Shown piece after piece: positions 27,408 to 49,973 of a stretch of 64,000 nucleotides of DNA; positions within the stretch are counted from its first letter, which is position 1; each line of letters opens with the position of its first letter. The translations under genes and the position numbers were made by a program. Source of the DNA: Thermosediminibacter oceani DSM 16646 (GTDB taxonomy: Bacteria; Bacillota; Thermosediminibacteria; Thermosediminibacterales; Thermosediminibacteraceae); contig NC_014377.1 in the NCBI RefSeq assembly GCF_000144645.1, positions 372,001 to 436,000 on the forward strand. The letters run 5' to 3'. The notes under the pieces were generated by a model that did no database searches, was not told the DNA's origin, and saw only the letters and a program-made list of their open reading frames with translations.

Positions 27408-28154
27408 ATGGATTTCAAAGACAAAGTGGTGGTGGTAACGGGCGCCGGCCGGGGCATAGGGCGGAGCATCGCCAGAATGTATGCATGTCATGGTGCGAAA
27501 GTAGTTATCGCCGACCGGAATTTCAAGGATGCGCAGGAAACGGAAAGGCTTATAAAAGAGGAAGGCGGCGAAGCCTTTGCCGTCCTTGCCGATGTCAGCA
27601 GGCCCGAGGACGTCGTAAAATTAATGGAAAAGACCGAGGAAATGTACGGCAGGCTGGATATACTCATAAACAACGCCGGGTTCGGCTGCTGGAAATCTCC
27701 CTATGACCTCAAGGTGGAGGAATGGGACAGTGTCATAAACACCAATCTTCGCGGTACATTCCTGTGTTCCCGGGAAGCGGCGAAAATCATGAGAAAAAAT
27801 GGTGGAGGCTCCATAGTGAACATAGCCTCCACCAGAGCCATCATGTCCGAGCCCGATTCCGAAAGTTATGCGGCTTCAAAGGGTGGCATACTTGCCCTCA
27901 CTCATGCGCTGGCGGTTTCTCTGGGTCCTGACCGTATAAGGGTGAACGCCATCAGCCCCGGATGGATCGAGACAGGGGACTATGAAAAACTCCGGGAAAT
28001 CGACCACCTTCAACACCCGGCAGGCCGGGTGGGAAAGCCCGAAGATATTGCCAGAGCATGCCTTTTTCTTACAGCCGATGAGAACGGCTTCATCACCGGA
28101 GCAAACCTTGTGATCGACGGAGGCATGACCCGGAAGATGATCTATGAACCATAG
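27408..28154 (+). CDS. Short-chain dehydrogenase/reductase
   Basis: NAD(P)-dependent oxidoreductase of 248 residues. Cofactor motif TGAGRGIGRS near residue 12, NNAG near 90, catalytic Ser in SIVNIASTRA and YAASK as the catalytic Tyr-Lys pair, then SPGWIETG. Closest in type to FabG or glucose 1-dehydrogenase-like SDRs; substrate not predictable. ATG 27408 follows GAGGAGG. It stops 25 bases before the ssrA -35 box. Confidence 0.9.
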   Translation: MDFKDKVVVVTGAGRGIGRSIARMYACHGAKVVIADRNFKDAQETERLIKEEGGEAFAVLADVSRPEDVVKLMEKTEEMYGRLDILINNAGFGCWKSPYDLKVEEWDSVINTNLRGTFLCSREAAKIMRKNGGGSIVNIASTRAIMSEPDSESYAASKGGILALTHALAVSLGPDRIRVNAISPGWIETGDYEKLREIDHLQHPAGRVGKPEDIARACLFLTADENGFITGANLVIDGGMTRKMIYEP

Positions 28155-30094
28155 GTTGTCCTTTTCTTTGACCTTTCTTGATATATTCTTCTTTTTGTTA
28201 TATAATAATATTGGCGAAAAGTGAATACGGGGGCGTTTGGTCTCGACGGGGGCGGCGGAGATAAAAGCTGCAGGCCGAGCTTTCCGACTCGTAAATCCGG
28301 AAGCACGAATAAGTGCCAACGAAGAATTAGCTCTTGCTGCTTAATTAAAACGCAGCACGCCCTTTCCGGCATGCCCGGTTGTCGGAAAAGGGTGTCATAG
28401 CTCCGGGCTCTTCTCCTGCTGTTAGCTTTGGCAGCCGGAGAGAACACTGACAAAGCTGGCCGGCTTTCAATCCTGCCCTCGGGAGTGAGGCCGGCGAGAT
28501 CAAAACGAGGGATAAGCCTGTAGAGGCTTTTATCGATGCGCCTTCGGACAGGGGTTCGATTCCCCTCGCCTCCACCAGCTTTATCCCTTTCCGTTTCGAA
28601 TTTCATATCCACTTTCAAAGACAAATCTATCCTATCAGGATAGATTATTATTTTATCTACAAAAGTTTCTATTATTTTTCTTTGGGCTTTAGGATCCCCG
28701 CTTAAAAGGGCTTCCCTGCAAATTCTCAGGTAATCCGCTACTTTTTCTTCGTTTATCCAGCTATACTCTTTTAATTTTAATTCGCTCAGCCTACTCTCGC
28801 ACTGTATTTTTTCGGCCTTATAGGCTTTCATCCTTTTATCTATCATTTCTTTATCACCATATCCTTCTGCAATGGCGTCTATCAGCCTTTCGATCTTAGC
28901 TTCAAGGTCCTTTATTTTGCTTTCTAGGTATTTGATTTCGCCGCTTTTTTCAGCTTCAAACTGCCTGACATACTCCAGAACCTTACGAGTGATTTCGTGA
29001 ATCATATTTTCCTCAAATATTTTGTTTAATAATTGATCCATTACGTATTTCTCTATAACATCCTGTCTGATGGATTTATTTTTGCAGGTTTTTGTCCGTA
29101 CACGTCTGGTACAGGTGTAAATAGCGTATTTTTTGCCATTACGCCCTCCCCTGTAGCTGTTTCCAGCATAGTGACTGCCGCATTCGCCGCAAAATATTTT
29201 GCCAGTTAGCAAATAAAACCTCTTTTCACTCATACGAGGACCCCTCTTCCTTGCCTGTATTTTCTCTTGGACTTTGTCAAAAGTTTGCTCATCAATTATA
29301 GCCGGCATACCGTTCGGGATTCTTATAATATTTTCATTATCCTTGAATCTTCTATTGTTTCGCTTACCTAAGCTGTCTTTGCTCGATCTTTTGTTAAAAA
29401 CGTAAGTGCCTTTGTATTTCTCATTTATAAGGATATCGTAAATACTGTTTTTCCCAAAAGGATTTCCCAATTTAGTTCTATATCCCTGTCTGTTCAAAAT
29501 ATCGGCTATTGCCTGATATGAATAGCCATCTAAATAAAGAGAAAAAATTTTTTTTACTATAACTGCTTCCTGCTCATTGATTACATAATAACCTTCTTCA
29601 TCTACATCATATCCAAGCGGTGGCAAACCGCCCGTATGCTTTGCCTGTAGAGCTGTCTCTTTCATTCCTTTCATTACTTCCCTGGCTAAGTTCCGAGAAT
29701 AGTATTCCGCCATGCCTTCGAGAACGGATTCTAAGATAATACTCTCAGGGCTGTCATCAAGAGGTTCAAGCACGCTTATGAGTTTAACGCCGTTTTTTTT
29801 CAGGATTCGCTTATAAAACGCGGAGTCATACCTATTTCTTGAAAACCTGTCGAGCTTATGGACGATGACAGCATCGAACATGCCTTTAGAGCTGTCCTCT
29901 ATCATTCGTAAGAAGTTAGGCCTATCATCGGTGGTTGCGCTTTTAGCTTCATCTATATAAATTTTTACTAAGACGTAACCTTCTTTTTCTGCAAATTCCT
30001 TTATAGCCCGCAGTTGAGCCTCAATGCTTTCCTCTCTCTGGTTGTCACTTGAATACCTGGCGTAAGCTGCAGCTTTAACTTTTGCTTCGCTCAT
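28142..30094 (-). CDS. Large serine recombinase (integrase), frame continues into antisense ssrA
   Basis: Site-specific integrase of the element. N-terminal resolvase domain with AYARYSSDNQREES (catalytic Ser) and HKLDRFSRNRYDSAFY. A recombinase domain follows (GLPPLGYDVDEEGYYVINEQEAVIVKKIFSLYLDG), then a zinc-ribbon (FCGECGSHYAG and CTRRVRTKTCKNKS) and a coiled coil. ATG 30094 follows AGGGAGGG. About 506 residues lie inside the element (to 28578). The remaining 144 residues, beginning GGGEGNRTPV, are simply the antisense of the tmRNA and of its upstream region. In the excised circle the C-terminus must be different. Confidence 0.9.
   Translation of the reverse strand: MSEAKVKAAAYARYSSDNQREESIEAQLRAIKEFAEKEGYVLVKIYIDEAKSATTDDRPNFLRMIEDSSKGMFDAVIVHKLDRFSRNRYDSAFYKRILKKNGVKLISVLEPLDDSPESIILESVLEGMAEYYSRNLAREVMKGMKETALQAKHTGGLPPLGYDVDEEGYYVINEQEAVIVKKIFSLYLDGYSYQAIADILNRQGYRTKLGNPFGKNSIYDILINEKYKGTYVFNKRSSKDSLGKRNNRRFKDNENIIRIPNGMPAIIDEQTFDKVQEKIQARKRGPRMSEKRFYLLTGKIFCGECGSHYAGNSYRGGRNGKKYAIYTCTRRVRTKTCKNKSIRQDVIEKYVMDQLLNKIFEENMIHEITRKVLEYVRQFEAEKSGEIKYLESKIKDLEAKIERLIDAIAEGYGDKEMIDKRMKAYKAEKIQCESRLSELKLKEYSWINEEKVADYLRICREALLSGDPKAQRKIIETFVDKIIIYPDRIDLSLKVDMKFETERDKAGGGEGNRTPVRRRIDKSLYRLIPRFDLAGLTPEGRIESRPALSVFSPAAKANSRRRARSYDTLFRQPGMPERACCVLIKQQELILRWHLFVLPDLRVGKLGLQLLSPPPPSRPNAPVFTFRQYYYITKRRIYQERSKKRTTYGS
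28179..28206 (+). promoter_or_regulatory. ssrA promoter
   Basis: TTGATA at 28179-28184, a 17-base spacer and a perfect TATAAT at 28201-28206. The tmRNA 5' end at 28229 is somewhat downstream, which suits a short precursor leader processed by RNase P. A degenerate copy lies at 25230-25277. Confidence 0.85.
28229..28577 (+). ncRNA. ssrA: tmRNA
   Basis: Transfer-messenger RNA that rescues stalled ribosomes. The 5' GGGGGCG pairs with CGCCTCC near the 3' end, and the 3' end GGTTCGATTCCCCTCGCCTC is the T-arm plus acceptor followed by an encoded ACCA. The resume codon GCA at 28303 opens the tag ARISANEELALAA, with TAA at 28342-28344. Length about 349 bases. The 3' end is the insertion site of the element that fills the rest of the window. 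Confidence 0.95.
28550..28595. other. Element boundary (attL) at the ssrA 3' end
   Basis: The chromosomal ssrA gene ends at 28577 and the recombinase gene of the mobile element is read towards it on the opposite strand with no gap. The tmRNA T-arm supplies a small inverted repeat suitable for recombinase binding. The crossover point cannot be fixed without attR, which is not in the window. Confidence 0.7.
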
Positions 30095-32536: not shown

Positions 32537-32566
32537 TATTGCCGTAATTTGAAGAGGAGGGGCAAT

Positions 32567-32901
32567 ATGAGATCAACAACGTAACTCTTGTCGGCAGGCT
32601 CACCAGGGATCCAGAGCTCCGGAAGGCTGGCGATGTTCCTGTATGCTCCTTCACCCTGGCGGTGGACAGGGATTTCCTGAACGGCGAAGGCGAGCGGGAG
32701 ACTGATTTTATACCCGTTGTGACGTGGAGGAAGCTGGCGGAGACCTGCGCCAATAACCTCAAGAAGGGCCGACTGGTGGGTGTGACGGGCAGGATCCAGG
32801 TCCGGCAATGGGAGCAAGAGGGTAAAAAACGTCGGGAAATGGAAGTAGTTGCGGACAGCGTGAGGTTTCTGGACAGGGGTAAAAAAGATGAAGGGCAGTA
32901 G
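32567..32901 (+). pseudogene. ssb: Single-stranded DNA-binding protein, frame broken at the start codon
   Basis: The product EINNVTLVGRLTRDPELRK...VCSFTLAVDRDF...TDFIPVVTWRKLAETCANNLKKGRLVGVTGRI...VVADSVRFLD is a complete OB-fold SSB of about 111 residues. The only well-placed start, ATG 32567 after GAGGAGGGG, is one base out of frame: ATG and the GAG codon share the G at 32569. The in-frame region before GAG has no ATG, GTG or TTG back to a stop at 32545. The first in-frame standard start is GTG 32662, which would remove a third of the OB fold. Either a base is missing in the sequence or the gene is damaged. Confidence 0.8.
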
Positions 32902-32914
32902 ACAGCCCTTTTTA
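32891..32914 (+). terminator. Rho-independent terminator after ssb
   Basis: AAGGGC/GCCCTT stem with loop AGTAGACA followed by T residues, overlapping the ssb stop codon. Confidence 0.8.
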
Positions 32915-32922
32915 TTATTTAT

Positions 32923-33020
32923 AGGCTGTGGATATGACGCAGCTGTGGGCCCTGCGGGTTACCCACAGGGCCCACAGCTGCTTGGGCAGCTCTCCGAGCT
33001 GCCCACATATCACACAGCCT
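32923..33020. repeat. Large cruciform: outer inverted repeat with two internal hairpins
   Basis: An outer imperfect stem (AGGCTGTGGATATG at 32923 against CATATCACACAGCCT at 33006) encloses a perfect 16-base-pair hairpin (GCAGCTGTGGGCCCTG at 32939 and its complement ending 32981) with a nearly closed loop. A second hairpin has stem GGGCAGCTC/GAGCTGCCC at 32984-33004. No T-run follows. It lies directly after ssb and before the replication genes, a setting that suits a single-strand origin or another replication or transfer site. Confidence 0.7.
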
Positions 33021-33026
33021 CTGCTA

Positions 33027-33608
33027 CTATTTTTTTACTTTTTTCCAAATTACAACGTAATATCTATGTTTGTTTAATTTTCTTAAATATTCCAAAAGGT
33101 TTCCTTTGTTGAGCTTATACACGTATTTTCTAATAATAAAAGATATTGCGGCAAGCGATATATTTATTATTATGGTCAGCATACTAGCTTTTATTTCCTT
33201 TATTTTCGGATTTCCTGGCAATTTCTTAATGAATTTGTGTGGTATAAGATGAGTTTTTACTATAATTTCATCACCTTCCTTTGCAGTTTTCATTATTTCC
33301 GGGAAGGCAGAATTTACAAAGTCTTTATAAATTAGATTTAGCGAACGGTTTATAGGATTTCCTATGATGATAGGAAATGAAGAAAATGTATTCATTTGGA
33401 GTGATATTTTATGTTTACCCGTCCTGATGTAGACAAAAAATCTGCTGATGGGCTTCAATGCAAGCCAAAGGGAAAAAATGAGCCAAAGGAAATACCTGGA
33501 AAAGTTACAGGGGAAATTGAGTATAATAAAACCTGTCAAAATCCAAAAAATAATCCCTCTAATCCCGACTCCATAAACCAAAAAACCGATAAAATCAACA
33601 ATGCCCAT
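33027..33608 (-). CDS. Hypothetical membrane protein
   Basis: 193 residues from the ATG at 33608, which has AAAGGAGG six bases upstream on the minus strand (the ATG at 33626 is too early). Hydrophobic segments lie at about residues 5-25, 25-50 and 145-165; the middle part is basic and soluble, and the C-terminus is strongly basic. AT-rich compared with neighbours. It is divergent from the membrane protein at 33657. Not recognised; entry exclusion or immunity is possible but unsupported. Confidence 0.55.
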   Translation of the reverse strand: MGIVDFIGFLVYGVGIRGIIFWILTGFIILNFPCNFSRYFLWLIFSLWLALKPISRFFVYIRTGKHKISLQMNTFSSFPIIIGNPINRSLNLIYKDFVNSAFPEIMKTAKEGDEIIVKTHLIPHKFIKKLPGNPKIKEIKASMLTIIINISLAAISFIIRKYVYKLNKGNLLEYLRKLNKHRYYVVIWKKVKK

Positions 33609-33656
33609 AAAAAACCTCCTTTTCATTGTGAGTTTTTTGGGTCAGAAGATCTGTCG

Positions 33657-34064
33657 ATGGGCCTGGGCAACCTGATAGCGTTTTATTTATTTACGAGGGG
33701 CAAATCAATACCCAACGGCAAAATCGTCTATTATTTCATCGAAAATCCGCATTTGTTGGGGAAATATTTTCCAAAGGATGATTTTTATTTTCCTCAATTT
33801 ATTTTGTGGATGGGAATATGCGGTGTTATTTTTGGCATAAGATGCATACTACTGCCGGAGCGGTGGCCGCAAAAACTGCTAATCGTTTATGATGTCTTTT
33901 TTTCTATACTCATGCTTTCAATTCCTGTATATTCAACAATAAAATATCTGACGCCTGGAACAATTTTCAACTTTTTATTTTTTCTGATGGTCTGGGGGAT
34001 TTTGTTTTTTTCCCGTATTTATTTACTGCATGAAAGCAATTATTATACGAAAAAGGATGATTAA
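33657..34064 (+). CDS. Hypothetical membrane protein
   Basis: 135 residues from ATG 33657 with three or four transmembrane segments (FPQFILWMGICGVIFGIRCILL, LLIVYDVFFSILMLSIPVY, FNFLFFLMVWGILFFSRIYLL). The upstream extension of the frame to 33411 is hydrophilic, overlaps the minus-strand gene and is probably not translated. The ribosome binding site is weak. AT-rich. Function unknown. Confidence 0.5.
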   Translation: MGLGNLIAFYLFTRGKSIPNGKIVYYFIENPHLLGKYFPKDDFYFPQFILWMGICGVIFGIRCILLPERWPQKLLIVYDVFFSILMLSIPVYSTIKYLTPGTIFNFLFFLMVWGILFFSRIYLLHESNYYTKKDD

Positions 34065-34065
34065 A

Positions 34066-35133
34066 ATGGCAGGGAATTACTTCGCCCGCTTCGGTGAAAT
34101 TATAGCCCGCAACGGAATAGCCAGTATCCCCGACGCCATATTCTCTTTCCAGAAAGAGCTCGGGTTAAGTGTCGGCGAATGCTGGTTCGTGGCCCAGATA
34201 CTGCGGTTTAAATGGACCACTGAACTACCGCGGCCTTCTTTGCGAAAAATGGCAGCATATACAGGCGTGAGCGAAAGGACCCTCCATAATTACAAAAATT
34301 CGCTTATTGAGAAAGGGTACCTTATTCTTCAAAATCGTTTAGATAGGACGGGCAGAAAAGATACGAACTACTATGACTTTTCTCCCCTTTTTGATGCAAT
34401 TATAGAGCTCTTAGACGGTAAAGATAATACAGCCAATCCGATTGAAGAAACTGAATTAGAAGATGACGAAAGGGTATCTGAAAATATTTCAGATAGGGGG
34501 GTATCTGAAAATTTTTCAGATACTATCTGTAAAAATTTCAGATACCTATCTGAAAATTTTTCAGAACACAAACAGAAGAATATACAAACAGAAGAAGAAT
34601 ATATAAATAACAACAACCCGCCGTCACAGGACGGCGGCAATGATACCCGGCCGGAGGCCGGGGTTGTTGTTTACTTAAAATCTCTGTATTTTGAAATCAC
34701 TGGTCGGGATAAAGGCAGGCTGATAGAAACGCTTGCGGCTAAACACGGCTGCGAAAAAGTACAAAAGGCTATCGAATACCTCCGCGAACAGCTCAAAAGA
34801 AACGACATCGCACGTCCTGAGGGTTTCCTGGTCCGTTTGCTGGAGGAAGACTGGGACCTCTCGACTTTCGATAAAATTCGGCACATGGAAGAGAAAAGAA
34901 GCAAGCGAGAGGAAGAACAGAGAAGGCGGCTCGAGGAACTAATGAACATTCGGGCTTCACCCGAGACAGCGCAAAAATACCTGAAGTTAATAAAGCAAAA
35001 ACTGCGAGGTGATGATGTTGAATCCAAAAACGATATCCTTCTGGAGTGCGGGTGGGAACGCGGGCAAGACCTCCCTGGCGATAGCCTTCGCACTGGCGTT
35101 GAGGAAACACAAAACCGAGGTGGTCCTGGCTGA
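34066..35133 (+). CDS. Replication initiator-like protein (winged helix, RepA_N/DnaD-like design)
   Basis: The N-terminal about 90 residues form a winged-helix replication-protein domain (LSVGECWFVAQILRFKWTTELPRPSLRKMAAYTGVSERTLHNYKNSLIEKGYLIL). A variable linker carries the palindromic repeats described separately, and a helical C-terminal domain follows (DKGRLIETLAAKHGCEKVQKAIEYLREQL). ATG 34066 after AAAGGATGA. The last about 40 residues overlap the ParA-like gene by 125 bases. A single extra base upstream would instead end the protein at the TGA at 35010, overlapping the ParA start, so the 3' end here may be a frameshift. Confidence 0.75.
   Translation: MAGNYFARFGEIIARNGIASIPDAIFSFQKELGLSVGECWFVAQILRFKWTTELPRPSLRKMAAYTGVSERTLHNYKNSLIEKGYLILQNRLDRTGRKDTNYYDFSPLFDAIIELLDGKDNTANPIEETELEDDERVSENISDRGVSENFSDTICKNFRYLSENFSEHKQKNIQTEEEYINNNNPPSQDGGNDTRPEAGVVVYLKSLYFEITGRDKGRLIETLAAKHGCEKVQKAIEYLREQLKRNDIARPEGFLVRLLEEDWDLSTFDKIRHMEEKRSKREEEQRRRLEELMNIRASPETAQKYLKLIKQKLRGDDVESKNDILLECGWERGQDLPGDSLRTGVEETQNRGGPG
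34473..34565. repeat. Four palindromic iteron-like repeats inside the rep gene
   Basis: Near-palindromes of about 22 bases with consensus TATCTGAAAATTTTTCAGATA begin near 34473, 34501, 34524 and 34547; the last is cut to its left 19 bases. They encode the repetitive SENISD/SENFSD/SENFSE linker. Spacing is about 23-28 bases. In RepA_N-type plasmids the origin is a repeat cluster within rep, and this has the same placement. Confidence 0.75.
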
Positions 35134-35782: not shown

Positions 35783-37006
35783 TCACGCATTTTTGCCGGG
35801 AGGAGACCATTGATAATCCGGGTCATACGGCCGGTTATCCTTCCAGAGAGAGTAGATCAGGTGAACAAGTTTTCTTGCAACGGCTCCTGTAGCAACATTC
35901 GAGTGCTTTCCCTGGCTGCGTTTTTGCTCATAATAAGCCCTCAACTCCGGGTTAAAACGGCGGGCTGAAACAGCGGCTAACCACAAGCTGTTTCTTAAAA
36001 CAGGGGAACCGCGTTTAGACATACGGTTACGAGTACCCTCAAACAATCCTGAAGCCCTGACTGTAGCATCTAAACCGGCATAAGCTACGAGAGCCCGGGG
36101 GTTAGGGAAACGAGAAATATCACCTATCTCACCGATAATTGCGGCAGCCAGGACAGGGCCAATACCTGGAATAGTTTCAATTACGTGGCGATAAGGGGTA
36201 TCCTTACTAGGACGAAGCTCCTCCATAACCTCGTTAATTGCATCTTCAATAACCTTTATCTGTTCTTCAATAAATTCAATTTGCTCAACCAACAAACGAA
36301 GCTGTAATGTGAAAGCGTCTAAAGCCATGGTGATACCGAAGGTCCCCTTAGCCAGAGATTGAATCTTTTTAGCTCTTTCTTCACCGAACCGACCGCGGGA
36401 ATGTTCTTTCAGGAAAGCAGATAACTCTGAAAGGTCCACTTCGGCTAATTCTTCCGGCTCCGGGTAAGATTTAAGCAGCTCCCTTGAAGTCCGGATAAAC
36501 ACATCGGAGAAGCAGTCTGGGTATTCAGGGAAAATCCTATCCAAAATACCAAGCACCCTGTTCTTAAGGCCACCGACCTGGCGTACGAACTCAAAGCGGA
36601 GTCGGGAGAGCGACTGCAATTTGAGGGTTGTTTCGGAAGGGAGTCTGGTCTCGGGGGCTCTTCCCAATCGCAGCAAGTCAGCAAGGAGCAGAGCATCTTT
36701 TTGGTCGGTTTTAGTTTTACGCACATAGAGATTCCGCAAAGCATCCGACTGAATGGGATTGATGACATGAAGTTCAAATCCCTGGTTAGTGAGGTAGCAG
36801 TAGATAGGGAGCCAGTAATGGCTGGTAGCCTCTAAGCAGAACTTTACGTCATCAGGCTTTAAACCGAGTCTTTCCAATGCCTGCAAAAGCTTATTCATTC
36901 CTTTATGGTTATTGTCTAGATGCATTTTTAAGACTATATCACCGGAGTCGTTTACGAGGCATACTTCGTGACTGTGTTTAGCCACATCAATACCGCCATA
37001 GAACAT
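35783..37006 (-). CDS. IS110-family transposase
   Basis: A 407-residue DEDD transposase. The N-terminal RuvC-like domain contains GIDVAKHSHEVCLV (first Asp), CLEATSHYWLP (Glu) and KTDQKDALLLADLLRLG (Asp pair). The C-terminal Tnp_20 domain has the IPGIGPVLAAAIIGEIGDISRF helix-hairpin region and SKRGSPVLRNSLW with the nucleophilic Ser. Full length and apparently intact. The family is guided by a bridge RNA made from the non-coding end. Confidence 0.95.
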   Translation of the reverse strand: MFYGGIDVAKHSHEVCLVNDSGDIVLKMHLDNNHKGMNKLLQALERLGLKPDDVKFCLEATSHYWLPIYCYLTNQGFELHVINPIQSDALRNLYVRKTKTDQKDALLLADLLRLGRAPETRLPSETTLKLQSLSRLRFEFVRQVGGLKNRVLGILDRIFPEYPDCFSDVFIRTSRELLKSYPEPEELAEVDLSELSAFLKEHSRGRFGEERAKKIQSLAKGTFGITMALDAFTLQLRLLVEQIEFIEEQIKVIEDAINEVMEELRPSKDTPYRHVIETIPGIGPVLAAAIIGEIGDISRFPNPRALVAYAGLDATVRASGLFEGTRNRMSKRGSPVLRNSLWLAAVSARRFNPELRAYYEQKRSQGKHSNVATGAVARKLVHLIYSLWKDNRPYDPDYQWSPPGKNA

Positions 37007-47118: not shown

Positions 47119-47487
47119 TTGAAGAAAGTAACGGTTTATCTTTCAGAAAATACATACGATGTCTTGAACAATCTATCTTCCAAAAGAAAAGAATCTATGT
47201 CATTAATCGCAAGAAAAATACTTGAAAAAGGACTGACAGAAGAAGCTGCAAAAGACGGGATAGACGCCGTAACGGACGCCGTAAGAAGGGCTATGCGCGA
47301 CATCCTGAAGCCTACCGAGGACCGCTTAGCCAAACTTGCAGCCAAGGCTGCGGTAGCAGCTGCTACGGCTATGTATCTCAATACACAATGCATTGCTGAC
47401 TTAGGGAAGAATAATGCTTTGGAGTTATATCAGATAGCCCGCACAAAAGCCGTCGCATACCTTCGGGAAAAGGATGAAGAAGCATGA
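47119..47487 (+). CDS. Ribbon-helix-helix mobilisation accessory protein
   Basis: A 122-residue protein. The N-terminal KKVTVYLSENTYDVLNNLSSKRKESMSLIARKILEKGL is a ribbon-helix-helix DNA-binding domain and the rest is Ala-rich and helical. TTG 47119 with GAAAGGAGG six bases upstream is the best start. It overlaps the relaxase gene by four bases and probably binds oriT like MobC-type accessory proteins. Confidence 0.75.
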   Translation: MKKVTVYLSENTYDVLNNLSSKRKESMSLIARKILEKGLTEEAAKDGIDAVTDAVRRAMRDILKPTEDRLAKLAAKAAVAAATAMYLNTQCIADLGKNNALELYQIARTKAVAYLREKDEEA

Positions 47488-49973
47488 GTCGAGCACCCTT
47501 CATAATAAAAATAGCCTTTTACAAGGCGTCTCAAAAAAATCAGGCAAAAAACGTTGCACACATCCAGTATATCGCCACAAGGCCGGGCGCAGATAGAGGC
47601 GAATTCAACATAGGTGACGACCTAGATGCAGATCCCGGTACCGCCGCTGGCCATGCAAAGTATATGGACGAGAGGCCTGGCAGCCACGGACTGTTCGGCC
47701 CCGAAAACAAAACGCCTGACCTAAGGGAAGTCCAGCGGGAACTTAAAGATCACAATGGGATTGTCTGGCGTATGGTCTTATCTTTGAAGGAAGAAGACGC
47801 CATAAGACTGGGATATACCGCAAGGGAATCCTGGGAGAAGGCCCTCAAGGCCACGATGCCTGAAGCTGCCGCTAAAATGGGTATTCGAGAGTCAAATCTG
47901 AAATGGGTTGCCGCCTTTCACCAAGCCCAGGGACACCCCCACGTCCACGTGGTCATGTGGGAAAAGACACCCCAGCGTACAAGGGGTGTCCTTTCTTTAG
48001 GGGAACGAAAGGACCTTCGCAGGGTATTTGTCCGTGAAATATATGCGGAAGAAAGACTTGCTCTTACGGCTAAAAAGTCGGCCATCAGAGACCTGATTAG
48101 AGAAACGGCGAGAAAGGACGTTTTTAGTGTCATAAGAGAGATTGAGAAAGCTAGACTGGAAGTTAGGGCCCTTGCAGGACAGGAACCGGGCCTCCCTCCG
48201 GTATTACATACTGTTACTCAAGAAGAGCTTATAAACAAATTAAACGGCTTGGCAAAAATCATGCCCGGACACGGCAGGGTTGCCCTTAAATACATGCCGG
48301 TGGAAGTGAAAAAAGAAGCAAGAGAAATAGCTGACTGGATCCTGTCCCAGCCTGGCTTTACGGGGTCTGTGGAAAGATATAAGGACCTTGCCAGACAGCT
48401 GGCCGGCTATCATACTTTTCAAGAGCAAAGGCTAAACGAAGCTGCACAGAAGGCTTACGAAGATATGAGAGACAGGGTAGCTCAGATAGTATTGCAGGGT
48501 GCTGTTAAAGTCCAGCAGATCGAGAGCTTCATAGAGTCCAGGCCGCAGATGACCGAGCATGAAGCGACCGAATATGAGGCGGTTAAGATTTCGGAACAGG
48601 CCTTAGAAAGAAAGGAAATAGAGAATATACCACAAGAAGGGACTATAGGCGGAAGGAGGATAGGTGCAGGCAGCGCCGATGAAGCAGCCAAAAGACTTTG
48701 GAGGACCACGCATTATTCCTTGAACAGGGTATATCTCCAGGAAAACCCGGGGGCCGACATACTGAAGCCGCGGCTGAACGAAAATTTTAGAAAAGAGATA
48801 GCCGAGCGCCTCCAGGATATAGCCAGCTCAATGCCGGACCTGCAGGGAAAACCTGCATATACTTATCTCCCTGATGAGTTAAAACAAAAAGCAAGGGAAA
48901 CGGCTGAATGGCTCCTTACCCGCCAGGAACTTCAGAATCGTTTTTCTGAAATTGGCCCCTTAAAAGCCGAACGGCTAACTCGGCGTATGGCGGAACAGGT
49001 AGCTATCAGAGCTTATGATCTTGTGCCGAAAGAAGTACCTGATGTTGAAATGGTGCTCCACAGCCGCCGGGCGGAAGAAGCGGTAAATAAATTACGAAGC
49101 GTTCGGTCGGACTTTGTCAAGGATGACCTCGAAGAGGCAAGATGGACGGTAGGCGCCATATACCGGGCTCTGACTTACCTTGGAAAAGAAAAAGAGGCTC
49201 GGGAGGTTGCAGAGAGATTCGGGAAAGAAGCCGGACTACAACATAATGAAATTCTAAAAGCCCTGGAAAAAGAGATTGAGCGTATACAATTTATAGCCGA
49301 CAAGTCCCAGGAAAAGGGTCAATATCAAAGGCATATGAGCCGGAACGACTGGCAGCAGCTCACCGAAAATCTGGGTTTAGAAGAAGAGGAGCTGCTGTTC
49401 CCCTGGTTTGGTGTAAAAAAAGTAGAAGAAAATGAGGCTGAAGAAAAGCAGAGAGTAAAAGAAGAATTAAAGGTAACTCTGATCGAAGATAGAGTTTCTC
49501 CTGCCGTTGCCGTATTAGAACAGGCTGGTGGAAAGCCGGAAGATCTAAAGGAACTTCGATGGACATTGGTCACAATGACTTCCGTGCTCAAAGCTTTAGG
49601 GGTAGATGAAGCTGGCCGGGAAAGGATTGTGCGGGGCTGGTGCGAGAGAGCTGGCGTGGATATATTGGAAGCAAGATTGAAGGATGTACTGGATAGGACG
49701 ACAATATCGAAGGATGATATTTGGCTCGGTAAACGAAGCTGGGAAAGGCTTATGGCCAATCTCGGCATTAAAGATGCACCGGACCTTCCCTGGTCGGTCG
49801 GCAGCCCTATACCAATGTCCGCCAGGGTGGCCTCGGATGTATGGAAGGCGGCCTGGAGGGCACTGGAACGGGAAAGGCTCAGGGCTGAGGCCCAGGTCCT
49901 TCTTGCGGCTGAAAGGGAGATGCAGAGGAAAAAAAGAGAGGCCGAGAGGGAGGGGAAAAGCCGTGAAGGTTAG
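47484..49973 (+). CDS. MobP-type relaxase
   Basis: An 829-residue DNA strand transferase that nicks oriT. N-terminal relaxase domain: PFIIKIAFYKASQKNQAKNVAHIQYIATRPG with the candidate Tyr, then the three-His motif HQAQGHPHVHVVMWE near residue 155. The long helical C-terminal part (residues about 250-829) has repeated LPDELKQKARETAEWLL-like segments that occur twice (KYMPVEVKKEAREIADWIL and TYLPDELKQKARETAEWLL), suggesting internal duplication. It resembles the MobP3-type relaxases of Firmicutes. Overlaps the coupling-protein gene by 11 bases. Confidence 0.87.
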   Translation: MSRAPFIIKIAFYKASQKNQAKNVAHIQYIATRPGADRGEFNIGDDLDADPGTAAGHAKYMDERPGSHGLFGPENKTPDLREVQRELKDHNGIVWRMVLSLKEEDAIRLGYTARESWEKALKATMPEAAAKMGIRESNLKWVAAFHQAQGHPHVHVVMWEKTPQRTRGVLSLGERKDLRRVFVREIYAEERLALTAKKSAIRDLIRETARKDVFSVIREIEKARLEVRALAGQEPGLPPVLHTVTQEELINKLNGLAKIMPGHGRVALKYMPVEVKKEAREIADWILSQPGFTGSVERYKDLARQLAGYHTFQEQRLNEAAQKAYEDMRDRVAQIVLQGAVKVQQIESFIESRPQMTEHEATEYEAVKISEQALERKEIENIPQEGTIGGRRIGAGSADEAAKRLWRTTHYSLNRVYLQENPGADILKPRLNENFRKEIAERLQDIASSMPDLQGKPAYTYLPDELKQKARETAEWLLTRQELQNRFSEIGPLKAERLTRRMAEQVAIRAYDLVPKEVPDVEMVLHSRRAEEAVNKLRSVRSDFVKDDLEEARWTVGAIYRALTYLGKEKEAREVAERFGKEAGLQHNEILKALEKEIERIQFIADKSQEKGQYQRHMSRNDWQQLTENLGLEEEELLFPWFGVKKVEENEAEEKQRVKEELKVTLIEDRVSPAVAVLEQAGGKPEDLKELRWTLVTMTSVLKALGVDEAGRERIVRGWCERAGVDILEARLKDVLDRTTISKDDIWLGKRSWERLMANLGIKDAPDLPWSVGSPIPMSARVASDVWKAAWRALERERLRAEAQVLLAAEREMQRKKREAEREGKSREG

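What the first reader, a model, noticed from the sequence alone, without database searches (positions are those of the whole stretch)
32923..33020. Nested cruciform between ssb and the replication genes
An outer imperfect stem of about 14 base pairs encloses a 16-base-pair perfect hairpin and a nine-base-pair hairpin, with no T-run. The size and setting resemble single-strand origins or strand-transfer sites, and it could convert transferred single strands to duplex in the recipient.
Basis: partly seen in the sequence, partly recalled or inferred. Interest (0 to 1): 0.55.

Follow-up and report, generated by a model that had tools for sequence, protein, structure and literature searches.

The report
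Folded origin-like DNA in mobile elements
The folded DNA beside a conjugative element's replication gene belongs to a widespread family of three-way hairpins that unrelated jumping genes also carry and that resembles the chromosome's replication start signal, so it may let these elements recruit the host's replication machinery.

Summary
The structure is real (32923-33020; z -12.15): a 14-bp outer stem enclosing a 16-bp and a 10-bp hairpin. It sits in a Thermosediminibacter integrative conjugative element (ICE) and is kept upstream of rep in 3 of 3 relatives. It is one copy of a large family of folded DNA: a covariance model finds it in 36 of 398 genomes of the phylum, and 34 of 45 pairs show double-sided changes among 32 copies. 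Copies lie inside unrelated insertion sequences (IS110, IS3, IS30-type) and on alphaproteobacterial plasmids. The 3' side has the layout of the host's own oriC: tandem DnaA-box-like sequences, a 4-nt spacer, triplet repeats, AT-rich DNA. The minus strand, which carries the triplets as a 5' tail, folds better in 48 of 50 copies. Most likely single-stranded DNA folds here into a ready-opened origin that loads DnaA or a primosome. The family is well supported; the mechanism is inferred. Against it: the window's own boxes are degenerate, the middle triplet base varies, and one of six IS families has the reverse orientation.

The parts
32923..33020 (.). Whole nested structure (three-way junction)
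   Evidence: DNA fold z -12.15; R2 match 108.8 bits, E 1.2e-29 with filters off; compensating changes in relatives
32923..32936 (.). Outer stem, 5' arm (AGGCTGTGGATATG)
33006..33020 (.). Outer stem, 3' arm, with bulged A at 33012
32939..32981 (.). First hairpin, 16 pairs plus 3 inner pairs
32983..33005 (.). Second hairpin, 10 pairs; changed on both sides relative to the three relatives
32999..33016 (+). Tandem DnaA-box-like sequences, degenerate in the window (CTGCCCACA, 3 mismatches to TTATCCACA; second box split by the bulge); the relatives have TTGTCCACA (1 mismatch)
   Evidence: consensus box
33021..33029 (-). Triplet repeats, CTG CTA CTA on the plus strand = 3'-GAC GAT GAT-5' on the minus strand, DnaA-trio-like
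   Evidence: same four-base phase as the host oriC
33030..33060 (.). AT-rich stretch (25 of 31 bases A or T)
   Evidence: read; 72% AT on average in 50 copies
32890..32911 (+). Separate terminator-like hairpin at the end of ssb
32581..32901 (+). ssb coding region; no in-frame ATG at the expected start
   Evidence: Pfam SSB E 4.5e-31; start region compared
34030..35133 (+). rep-like gene, DnaD N-terminal domain plus helix-turn-helix; neighbour of the structure in the relatives
47484..49973 (+). MobL/MobP3 relaxase of the same element
28142..30094 (-). Large serine recombinase whose frame runs through the tmRNA gene (28229-28577); left end of the element

Best explanation
The nested structure is one copy of a widespread family of cis-acting DNA modules carried by unrelated mobile elements: this ICE family, IS110, IS3, IS30-type and probably IS21-like elements. 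Shown: the fold is kept by compensating changes, one strand folds better than the other, and its base has the layout of the host oriC unwinding site (tandem DnaA-box-like sequences, 4-nt spacer, triplet repeats, AT-rich DNA). Inferred: when the minus strand becomes single-stranded (transferred or displaced strand), it folds so that the box-like sequences are double-stranded while the triplets stay single-stranded as a 5' tail. That is the kind of substrate on which DnaA is reported to form an oligomer. DnaA would then help load the replicative helicase, with host DnaD/DnaB/DnaI or the element's own DnaD-like protein, and start copying: second-strand synthesis or origin activity in the ICE, replication of transposition intermediates in insertion sequences.
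For: Fold far beyond chance. Kept upstream of rep in 3 of 3 relatives. 34 of 45 pairs with double-sided changes in 32 copies, 0 of 500 shuffles as high. Inside the repeated unit of six IS repeat families and, with an IS110, inside a CRISPR array. Host oriC has the same order of signals. Triplets C-K-R: C in 44, 45, 47 and purine in 49, 50, 44 of 50 copies. With a model built without the tail, 10 of 25 copies outside its training set keep strict (CKR)x3 at the exact offset, shuffled mean 0.0035. Same four-base phase in 8 of the 11 host oriC tracts recognised among 30 dnaA loci. Minus strand more stable in 48 of 50 copies; C-GNA-G triloops 40 of 100 on the minus strand, 1 of 101 on the plus strand. 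DnaA oligomers need boxes plus a 5' tail with trios (passage of PMC8287927).
Against: The window copy fails the published box rule (best box 3 mismatches, second box split); in 50 copies 21 meet the published rule (shuffled mean 0.70). The middle triplet base, the conserved adenine of published trios, is the most variable here, and alphaproteobacterial tails are mostly CAR or AAG. The window's second hairpin kept pairing while its box sequence drifted. RNA energies show the same strand bias (48 of 50), so it does not separate DNA from RNA. One of six repeated IS families has the tail facing inward. 16 of 50 copies have no recognised neighbour within 1 kb. No binding or activity was tested.
Confidence: 0.5

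Rival explanations
1. A structure-specific single-strand origin or primosome assembly site recognised by PriA, RNA polymerase or another host factor. The DnaA resemblance is partly fortuitous and the triplets serve another protein.
For: Pairing is kept while box bases drift in the window. The middle triplet base is free. ICEBs1 has a functional sso with stem-loops (passages of PMC4595007).
Against: The spacing and order of boxes, spacer, triplets and AT-rich DNA match the host oriC and would need another reason.
Confidence: 0.25
2. A double-stranded DnaA site that times or damps transposition and transfer, or titrates DnaA.
For: DnaA-box-like sequences near IS ends; DnaA boxes at transposon ends are known (recalled).
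Against: Double-stranded action does not need the hairpins, yet the pairs covary strongly and one strand is favoured.
Confidence: 0.1
3. An RNA element or transcription terminator.
For: Very stable as RNA; RNA energies also favour the minus strand; T-rich DNA nine bases downstream.
Against: ssb has its own terminator-like hairpin. Several GC-rich copies have no T-run after the stem. The structure is on the same strand as the transposase gene in some IS110 copies and on the opposite strand in others. No Rfam match at the structure at gathering score.
Confidence: 0.08
4. A dispersed palindromic repeat that serves as a landing site for insertion sequences.
For: Several IS families lie beside it; 16 of 50 nonredundant copies have no recognised neighbour within 1 kb.
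Against: It lies inside the repeated unit in six IS repeat families, and an IS110 with its structure sits inside a CRISPR array whose repeats resume on the far side.
Confidence: 0.04

Closest known systems
Basal unwinding system (BUS) of bacterial oriC: DnaA-boxes, spacer, DnaA-trios (PMC8287927, passages)
   Same: Order box-box-spacer-triplets-AT-rich DNA; four-base phase as in 8 of 11 host oriC tracts recognised
   Different: Lies on mobile elements; boxes are embedded in a conserved three-way fold; boxes more degenerate; the middle adenine of the trio is not conserved
Single-strand origins of rolling-circle plasmids and ICEs, e.g. sso1 of ICEBs1 (PMC4595007, passages)
   Same: Stem-loops that form in single-stranded DNA of a conjugative element; probably one active strand
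   Different: Also inside insertion sequences; oriC-like signals; similarity to known sso sequences was not tested
DnaA-box hairpin (A-site, ABC primosome) of plasmid R6K (recalled, no call)
   Same: Hairpin with DnaA-box-like sequence that could load a helicase on ssDNA
   Different: Here a three-way junction with a triplet tail, shared by many unrelated elements
REP elements and IS200/IS605 subterminal hairpins (recalled)
   Same: Folded DNA near the ends of insertion sequences
   Different: Shared by IS110, IS3 and IS30-type elements and ICEs; inside the IS unit in the six repeat families analysed

Membership tests
oriC basal unwinding system (BUS) | DnaA-box with at most 2 mismatches within 16 bp of the trios (rule of PMC8287927) | tested here: not met
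   Window: best box CTGCCCACA, 3 mismatches (read); its three ICE relatives have TTGTCCACA, 1 mismatch. Box plus NTNx3 rule met by 21 of 50 copies, shuffled mean 0.70
oriC basal unwinding system (BUS) | At least three trios 3'-NAN-5' on one strand | tested here: met
   Window: CTG CTA CTA on the plus strand = 3'-GAC GAT GAT-5'. Not general: the middle base varies between T, G and C in 50 copies
oriC basal unwinding system (BUS) | Lies in a chromosomal replication origin | tested here: not met
   It lies in an ICE; the host oriC is between dnaA and dnaN
oriC basal unwinding system (BUS) | DnaA-dependent strand opening | not testable with these tools
   needs purified DnaA
Single-strand origin (sso) | Stable stem-loops in single-stranded DNA | tested here: met
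Single-strand origin (sso) | Orientation-dependent second-strand synthesis | not testable with these tools
   needs a rolling-circle reporter
Single-strand origin (sso) | Sequence or structure similarity to described sso types | not tested
   no sso reference was aligned
Intrinsic terminator | T-run directly after the stem | tested here: not met
   CTGCTACTA (33021-33029) separates stem and T-rich DNA; the terminator scan reports other hairpins, not this one
Known RNA family (Rfam 15) | Match at or above the gathering score at the structure | tested here: not met
   window; 16 loci with copies; permissive hits far below cut-off
IS landing site (REP-like) | Structure lies outside the IS unit | tested here: not met
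   inside the unit in six IS repeat families and in the CRISPR-array insertion

The most novel reading that the evidence does not exclude
Unrelated bacterial mobile elements (conjugative elements and several insertion-sequence families, in at least two phyla) share a portable folded copy of the chromosome's own origin-opening signal. It acts in single-stranded DNA as a pre-opened origin, so that DnaA and the helicase loader can be placed directly on transfer and transposition intermediates. Insertion-sequence circles or copy-out intermediates would then recruit the host replisome through an origin of their own.
Probability: 0.4. Interest if true: 0.92.

Novelty: new variant of a known kind. 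Interest (0 to 1): 0.77.

Why it matters
How copy-out transposition and conjugative elements recruit the replisome away from oriC is largely open (recalled). A shared, strand-biased folded module with oriC-like signals would make this directly testable with short oligonucleotides and purified DnaA, and would link insertion sequences, ICEs and chromosome initiation. Even if DnaA is not the binder, a folded DNA family kept by compensating changes in IS110, IS3, IS30-type elements and ICEs calls for an explanation, and the covariance model gives a way to find it.

Tried and rejected
Terminator: ssb has its own hairpin; the strand relative to the transposase gene varies; several GC-rich copies lack a T-run.

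Known RNA family: no Rfam match at the structure at gathering score; permissive hits far below cut-off. IS110 bridge RNA: rejected because IS3 and IS30-type units also carry the structure.

IS landing site: rejected for the copies inside IS units.

Second copy in the window's element, as in G019: scoring of window 28000-64000 without filters gave, apart from the antisense reading of the known copy (25.5 bits), at best 19.6 bits at the repeats inside rep, against 108.8 for the known copy.

Host match of tail flavour to oriC flavour: G325 fits, G138 does not; not pursued. A universal outward orientation failed for one of six repeated IS families. The reversed-sequence control was uninformative, because it keeps the mismatches that cause the strand bias (it too gave 48 of 50). 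RNA energies also gave 48 of 50.

Rows dropped before counts: of the 102 matches, the 29 rows after L154 (weaker, partial or antisense) were dropped, leaving 73; 50 remained after the 90% similarity filter. Of the 67 matches, 11 were dropped (8 duplicates of a locus, 1 partial, 2 antisense); of the 56 left, those with less than 20 bases of tail and those at least 90% similar to the training set or to each other were dropped, leaving 25. The alignment for R3 used 30 of the 31 references listed.

Empty searches: window copy against plasmids, IS110 copy against phages, Bradyrhizobium copy against E. coli, degenerate 21-mer in viral contigs. A 16-mer hit 14 viral stretches, of which the model confirmed 0. 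Two genome searches reached only 4 and 17 genomes.

Literature: searches (listings with abstract starts only) showed no paper on this structure in insertion sequences; six papers hold both 'DnaA-trio' and 'transpos' and none is about this by its title and abstract start. The library is open-access only, so absence from print is not shown.

Full report
OBSERVATION. Window 32900-33045 folds as DNA into the described shape at -48.9 kcal/mol; 200 shuffles average -15.97 (z -12.15, 0 as stable). The RNA fold has the same shape. The outer stem has 14 pairs with one bulge, the first hairpin 16 pairs plus 3 inner pairs, the second 10 pairs. The minus strand of 32915-33045 folds at -51.7 kcal/mol (z -13.19).

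SETTING. The window lies on a one-contig chromosome of 2,280,035 bases. A contig of Thermosediminibacter litoriperuensis that holds a close relative of the rep gene has the same length, 107065, as the contig of G020, a genome of the window's genus. The window is therefore Thermosediminibacter, probably T. oceani (inferred). The structure lies in an integrative conjugative element (ICE). Its genes include a large serine recombinase whose frame runs through the tmRNA gene, a MobL/MobP3 relaxase, a VirD4-type coupling protein and a TadA-like ATPase. A 118-base partial repeat of the tmRNA 3' region (84% identity) lies at 69020-69137 on the window's scale, 5 kb beyond its end; this suggests an element of about 40 kb. 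The rep-like gene has a DnaD N-terminal domain and weakly matches solved DnaD structures (E 0.0019).

CONSERVATION BESIDE REP. Of 22 genomes of the order, 4 (own included) hold the rep gene at E <= 1e-6. All 3 relatives keep the structure upstream of it, about 20 bases away in two and about 470 in G017. In G017 a gene that reads as a DNA methylase stands where ssb is elsewhere, so the association is with rep rather than ssb. The window has about 1 kb of extra DNA with two unknown genes between structure and rep. In these four sequences 5 of 45 pairs change on both sides. Two of the five are in the second hairpin: GGACAACTC/GAGTTGTCC in the relatives, GGGCAGCTC/GAGCTGCCC in the window.

A FAMILY. 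A covariance model of these four (R1) found matches in 36 of 398 genomes of the phylum at E <= 0.001 (three of the genomes used to build it are among them). A model of 32 copies (R2) found 16 of 97 genomes of the class of G322 at E <= 1e-4. G322 alone had 19 matches, two of them antisense readings of listed copies. On 32 aligned copies 34 of 45 pairs have changes on both sides (shuffled mean 15.7, 0 of 500 as high; partners slid by 1-3 columns give 7 to 10), and 91.9% of cells pair. That alignment was fitted to the structure. A sequence-only alignment of 30 copies still gave the same three-way layout by RNAalifold, with 21 pairs.

WHERE IT LIVES. In genomes with many copies the structure lies inside the repeated IS unit: two IS110 units of about 2.0 kb, an IS30-type unit of 1.4 kb (Pfam finds only the HTH_38 domain; the IS30 name is recalled) and three IS3-type units of about 1.5 kb. 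One IS110 with its structure sits inside a CRISPR array whose repeats resume beyond it. In five of these six repeat families the tail faces the nearest IS end, 97-133 bases away; in the sixth (L167/L168) it faces inward, 75 bases from the end. Of 50 nonredundant copies, 7 lie beside IS110, 5 beside IS3, 1 beside IS30-type, 3 beside IS21-like genes and 1 beside an integrase-like gene. Seven lie beside genes typical of such ICEs, 3 beside DUF1670 genes alone and 2 beside tyrosine-recombinase-like genes alone; 5 are at contig edges and 16 have no recognised neighbour within 1 kb. Some of these labels (IstB, tyrosine recombinase, integrase-like) are my reading of the sequence. The 7 nonredundant IS110 copies all have the tail pointing away from the transposase, whichever strand that gene is on.

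OTHER PHYLA. An IS110-borne copy matched 12 Bradyrhizobium plasmids, and a Bradyrhizobium copy matched 26 plasmid records (24 Bradyrhizobium, 1 Acidiphilium, 1 Skermanella). I fetched 9 of these records; the tail-free model R3 scored all 9 (E 1.3e-13 to 7e-7). One match begins within ten bases of the end of an annotated IS21 istB gene; another lies beside the annotated ISNCY element ISBj12. The Bradyrhizobium copy has no match in E. coli genomes and the IS110 copy none in phages.

THE ORIGIN RESEMBLANCE. The host's own oriC, between dnaA and dnaN, reads TTATCCACATATCCACA-AGCT-GTACTACTACTACTGCTA followed by AT-rich DNA. The 3' side of the structure has the same order; the family's commonest form is TTGMCCACA-TAYCCACA, four bases, triplets, AT-rich DNA. 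In 50 nonredundant copies C stands at triplet position 1 in 44, 45 and 47, and a purine at position 3 in 49, 50 and 44. Positions 10-40 after the stem average 72% AT, against 56% further on and 56% upstream. Because R1 and R2 included the tail, I built R3 without it. Of 25 copies outside its training set and under 90% similar to it, 10 have strict (C-K-R)x3 at the exact offset, against a shuffled mean of 0.0035 and a maximum of 1 in 2000 shuffles. Most of those 25 had first been found with R1 or R2, so the test is not fully independent. In 30 host dnaA loci I recognised a box-plus-triplet tract in 11, and 8 of the 11 have the same four-base phase (G020 and G230 by reading).

WHICH STRAND. With DNA energies the minus strand is more stable in 48 of 50 copies (mean -38.1 against -33.4 kcal/mol). 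Mismatches are more often A.C on the plus strand, which are G.T on the minus strand, than the reverse (90 against 39 of 2121 cells). Triloops of the C-GNA-G type, recalled as unusually stable in DNA, make up 40 of 100 loops on the minus strand and 1 of 101 on the plus strand. RNA energies show the same bias (48 of 50), and the copies are related, so these counts are not independent. The minus strand carries the triplets as a single-stranded 5' tail next to the stem.

MECHANISM. [quoted passage not shown] Passages of PMC10201434 state that the helicase can be loaded around the trio strand and that DnaD binds the opposite strand. The folded minus strand would present that substrate without prior unwinding. 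I infer that it loads the primosome on single-stranded intermediates: transferred strand or rolling-circle product in the ICE, displaced strand during copy-out in insertion sequences. IS30 is described as copy-out-paste-in with circular intermediates in the abstract start of PMC9333248 (listing); for IS110 and IS3 I rely on recall.

AGAINST. The window copy's first box is CTGCCCACA (3 mismatches; TTGTCCACA, 1 mismatch, in the three relatives) and its second is split by the bulge, so it fails the published rule. In 50 copies 21 meet that rule (shuffled mean 0.70), and 24 meet it with (C-K-R)x3 triplets instead (shuffled mean 0.04). The middle triplet base, the conserved adenine of published trios, is the most variable here, and alphaproteobacterial tails read mostly CAR or AAG. 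In the window pairing was kept while box sequence drifted, which favours structure over box. No activity was tested.

VERDICT. The family and its presence inside mobile elements are well supported. A single-strand initiation role is likely; the DnaA step is about even odds. As membership it is neither a BUS (the window copy fails a defining feature) nor a proven sso; it would work like both.

Noticed in passing
32560-32600: The ssb of the window has no in-frame ATG at its expected start, whereas the T. litoriperuensis-type copy (L011) has one; ssb may be inactive here.
   Followed up: partly
34473-34565: Repeated inverted motifs (TATCTGAAAATWTTTCAGATA type) lie inside the rep gene and recur in two relatives; candidate iterons or oriV within rep.
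   Followed up: no
35783-37006: A gene that reads as an IS110 transposase lies between the ParA-like and TadA-like genes; the three relatives lack this stretch.
   Followed up: no
33027-34064: Two unknown genes (199 and 217 aa, no Pfam match) inserted between structure and rep only in the window; G017 has a different insert there.
   Followed up: no
28142-28683 and 69020-69137 (5 kb beyond the window): The serine recombinase frame overlaps tmRNA, and a partial tmRNA-end repeat lies about 40 kb away; likely attachment sites of the element.
   Followed up: partly
L070:5084-5249: The G019 element holds a second, more complex copy upstream of its MobL-type relaxase gene, possibly near oriT.
   Followed up: partly
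L073:4928-6794: An IS110 with its structure is inserted in a long CRISPR array.
   Followed up: partly
L133 (oriC region of G325): A host oriC with CGA-type triplets (CGACGACGACGACTACGA) next to a DnaA box, hinting that oriC trios can lack the middle adenine.
   Followed up: no
all copies, second hairpin and outer stem: A recurring A.C mismatch (G.T on the minus strand) falls at the position that corresponds to base 4 of the DnaA-box; the meaning is unknown.
   Followed up: partly
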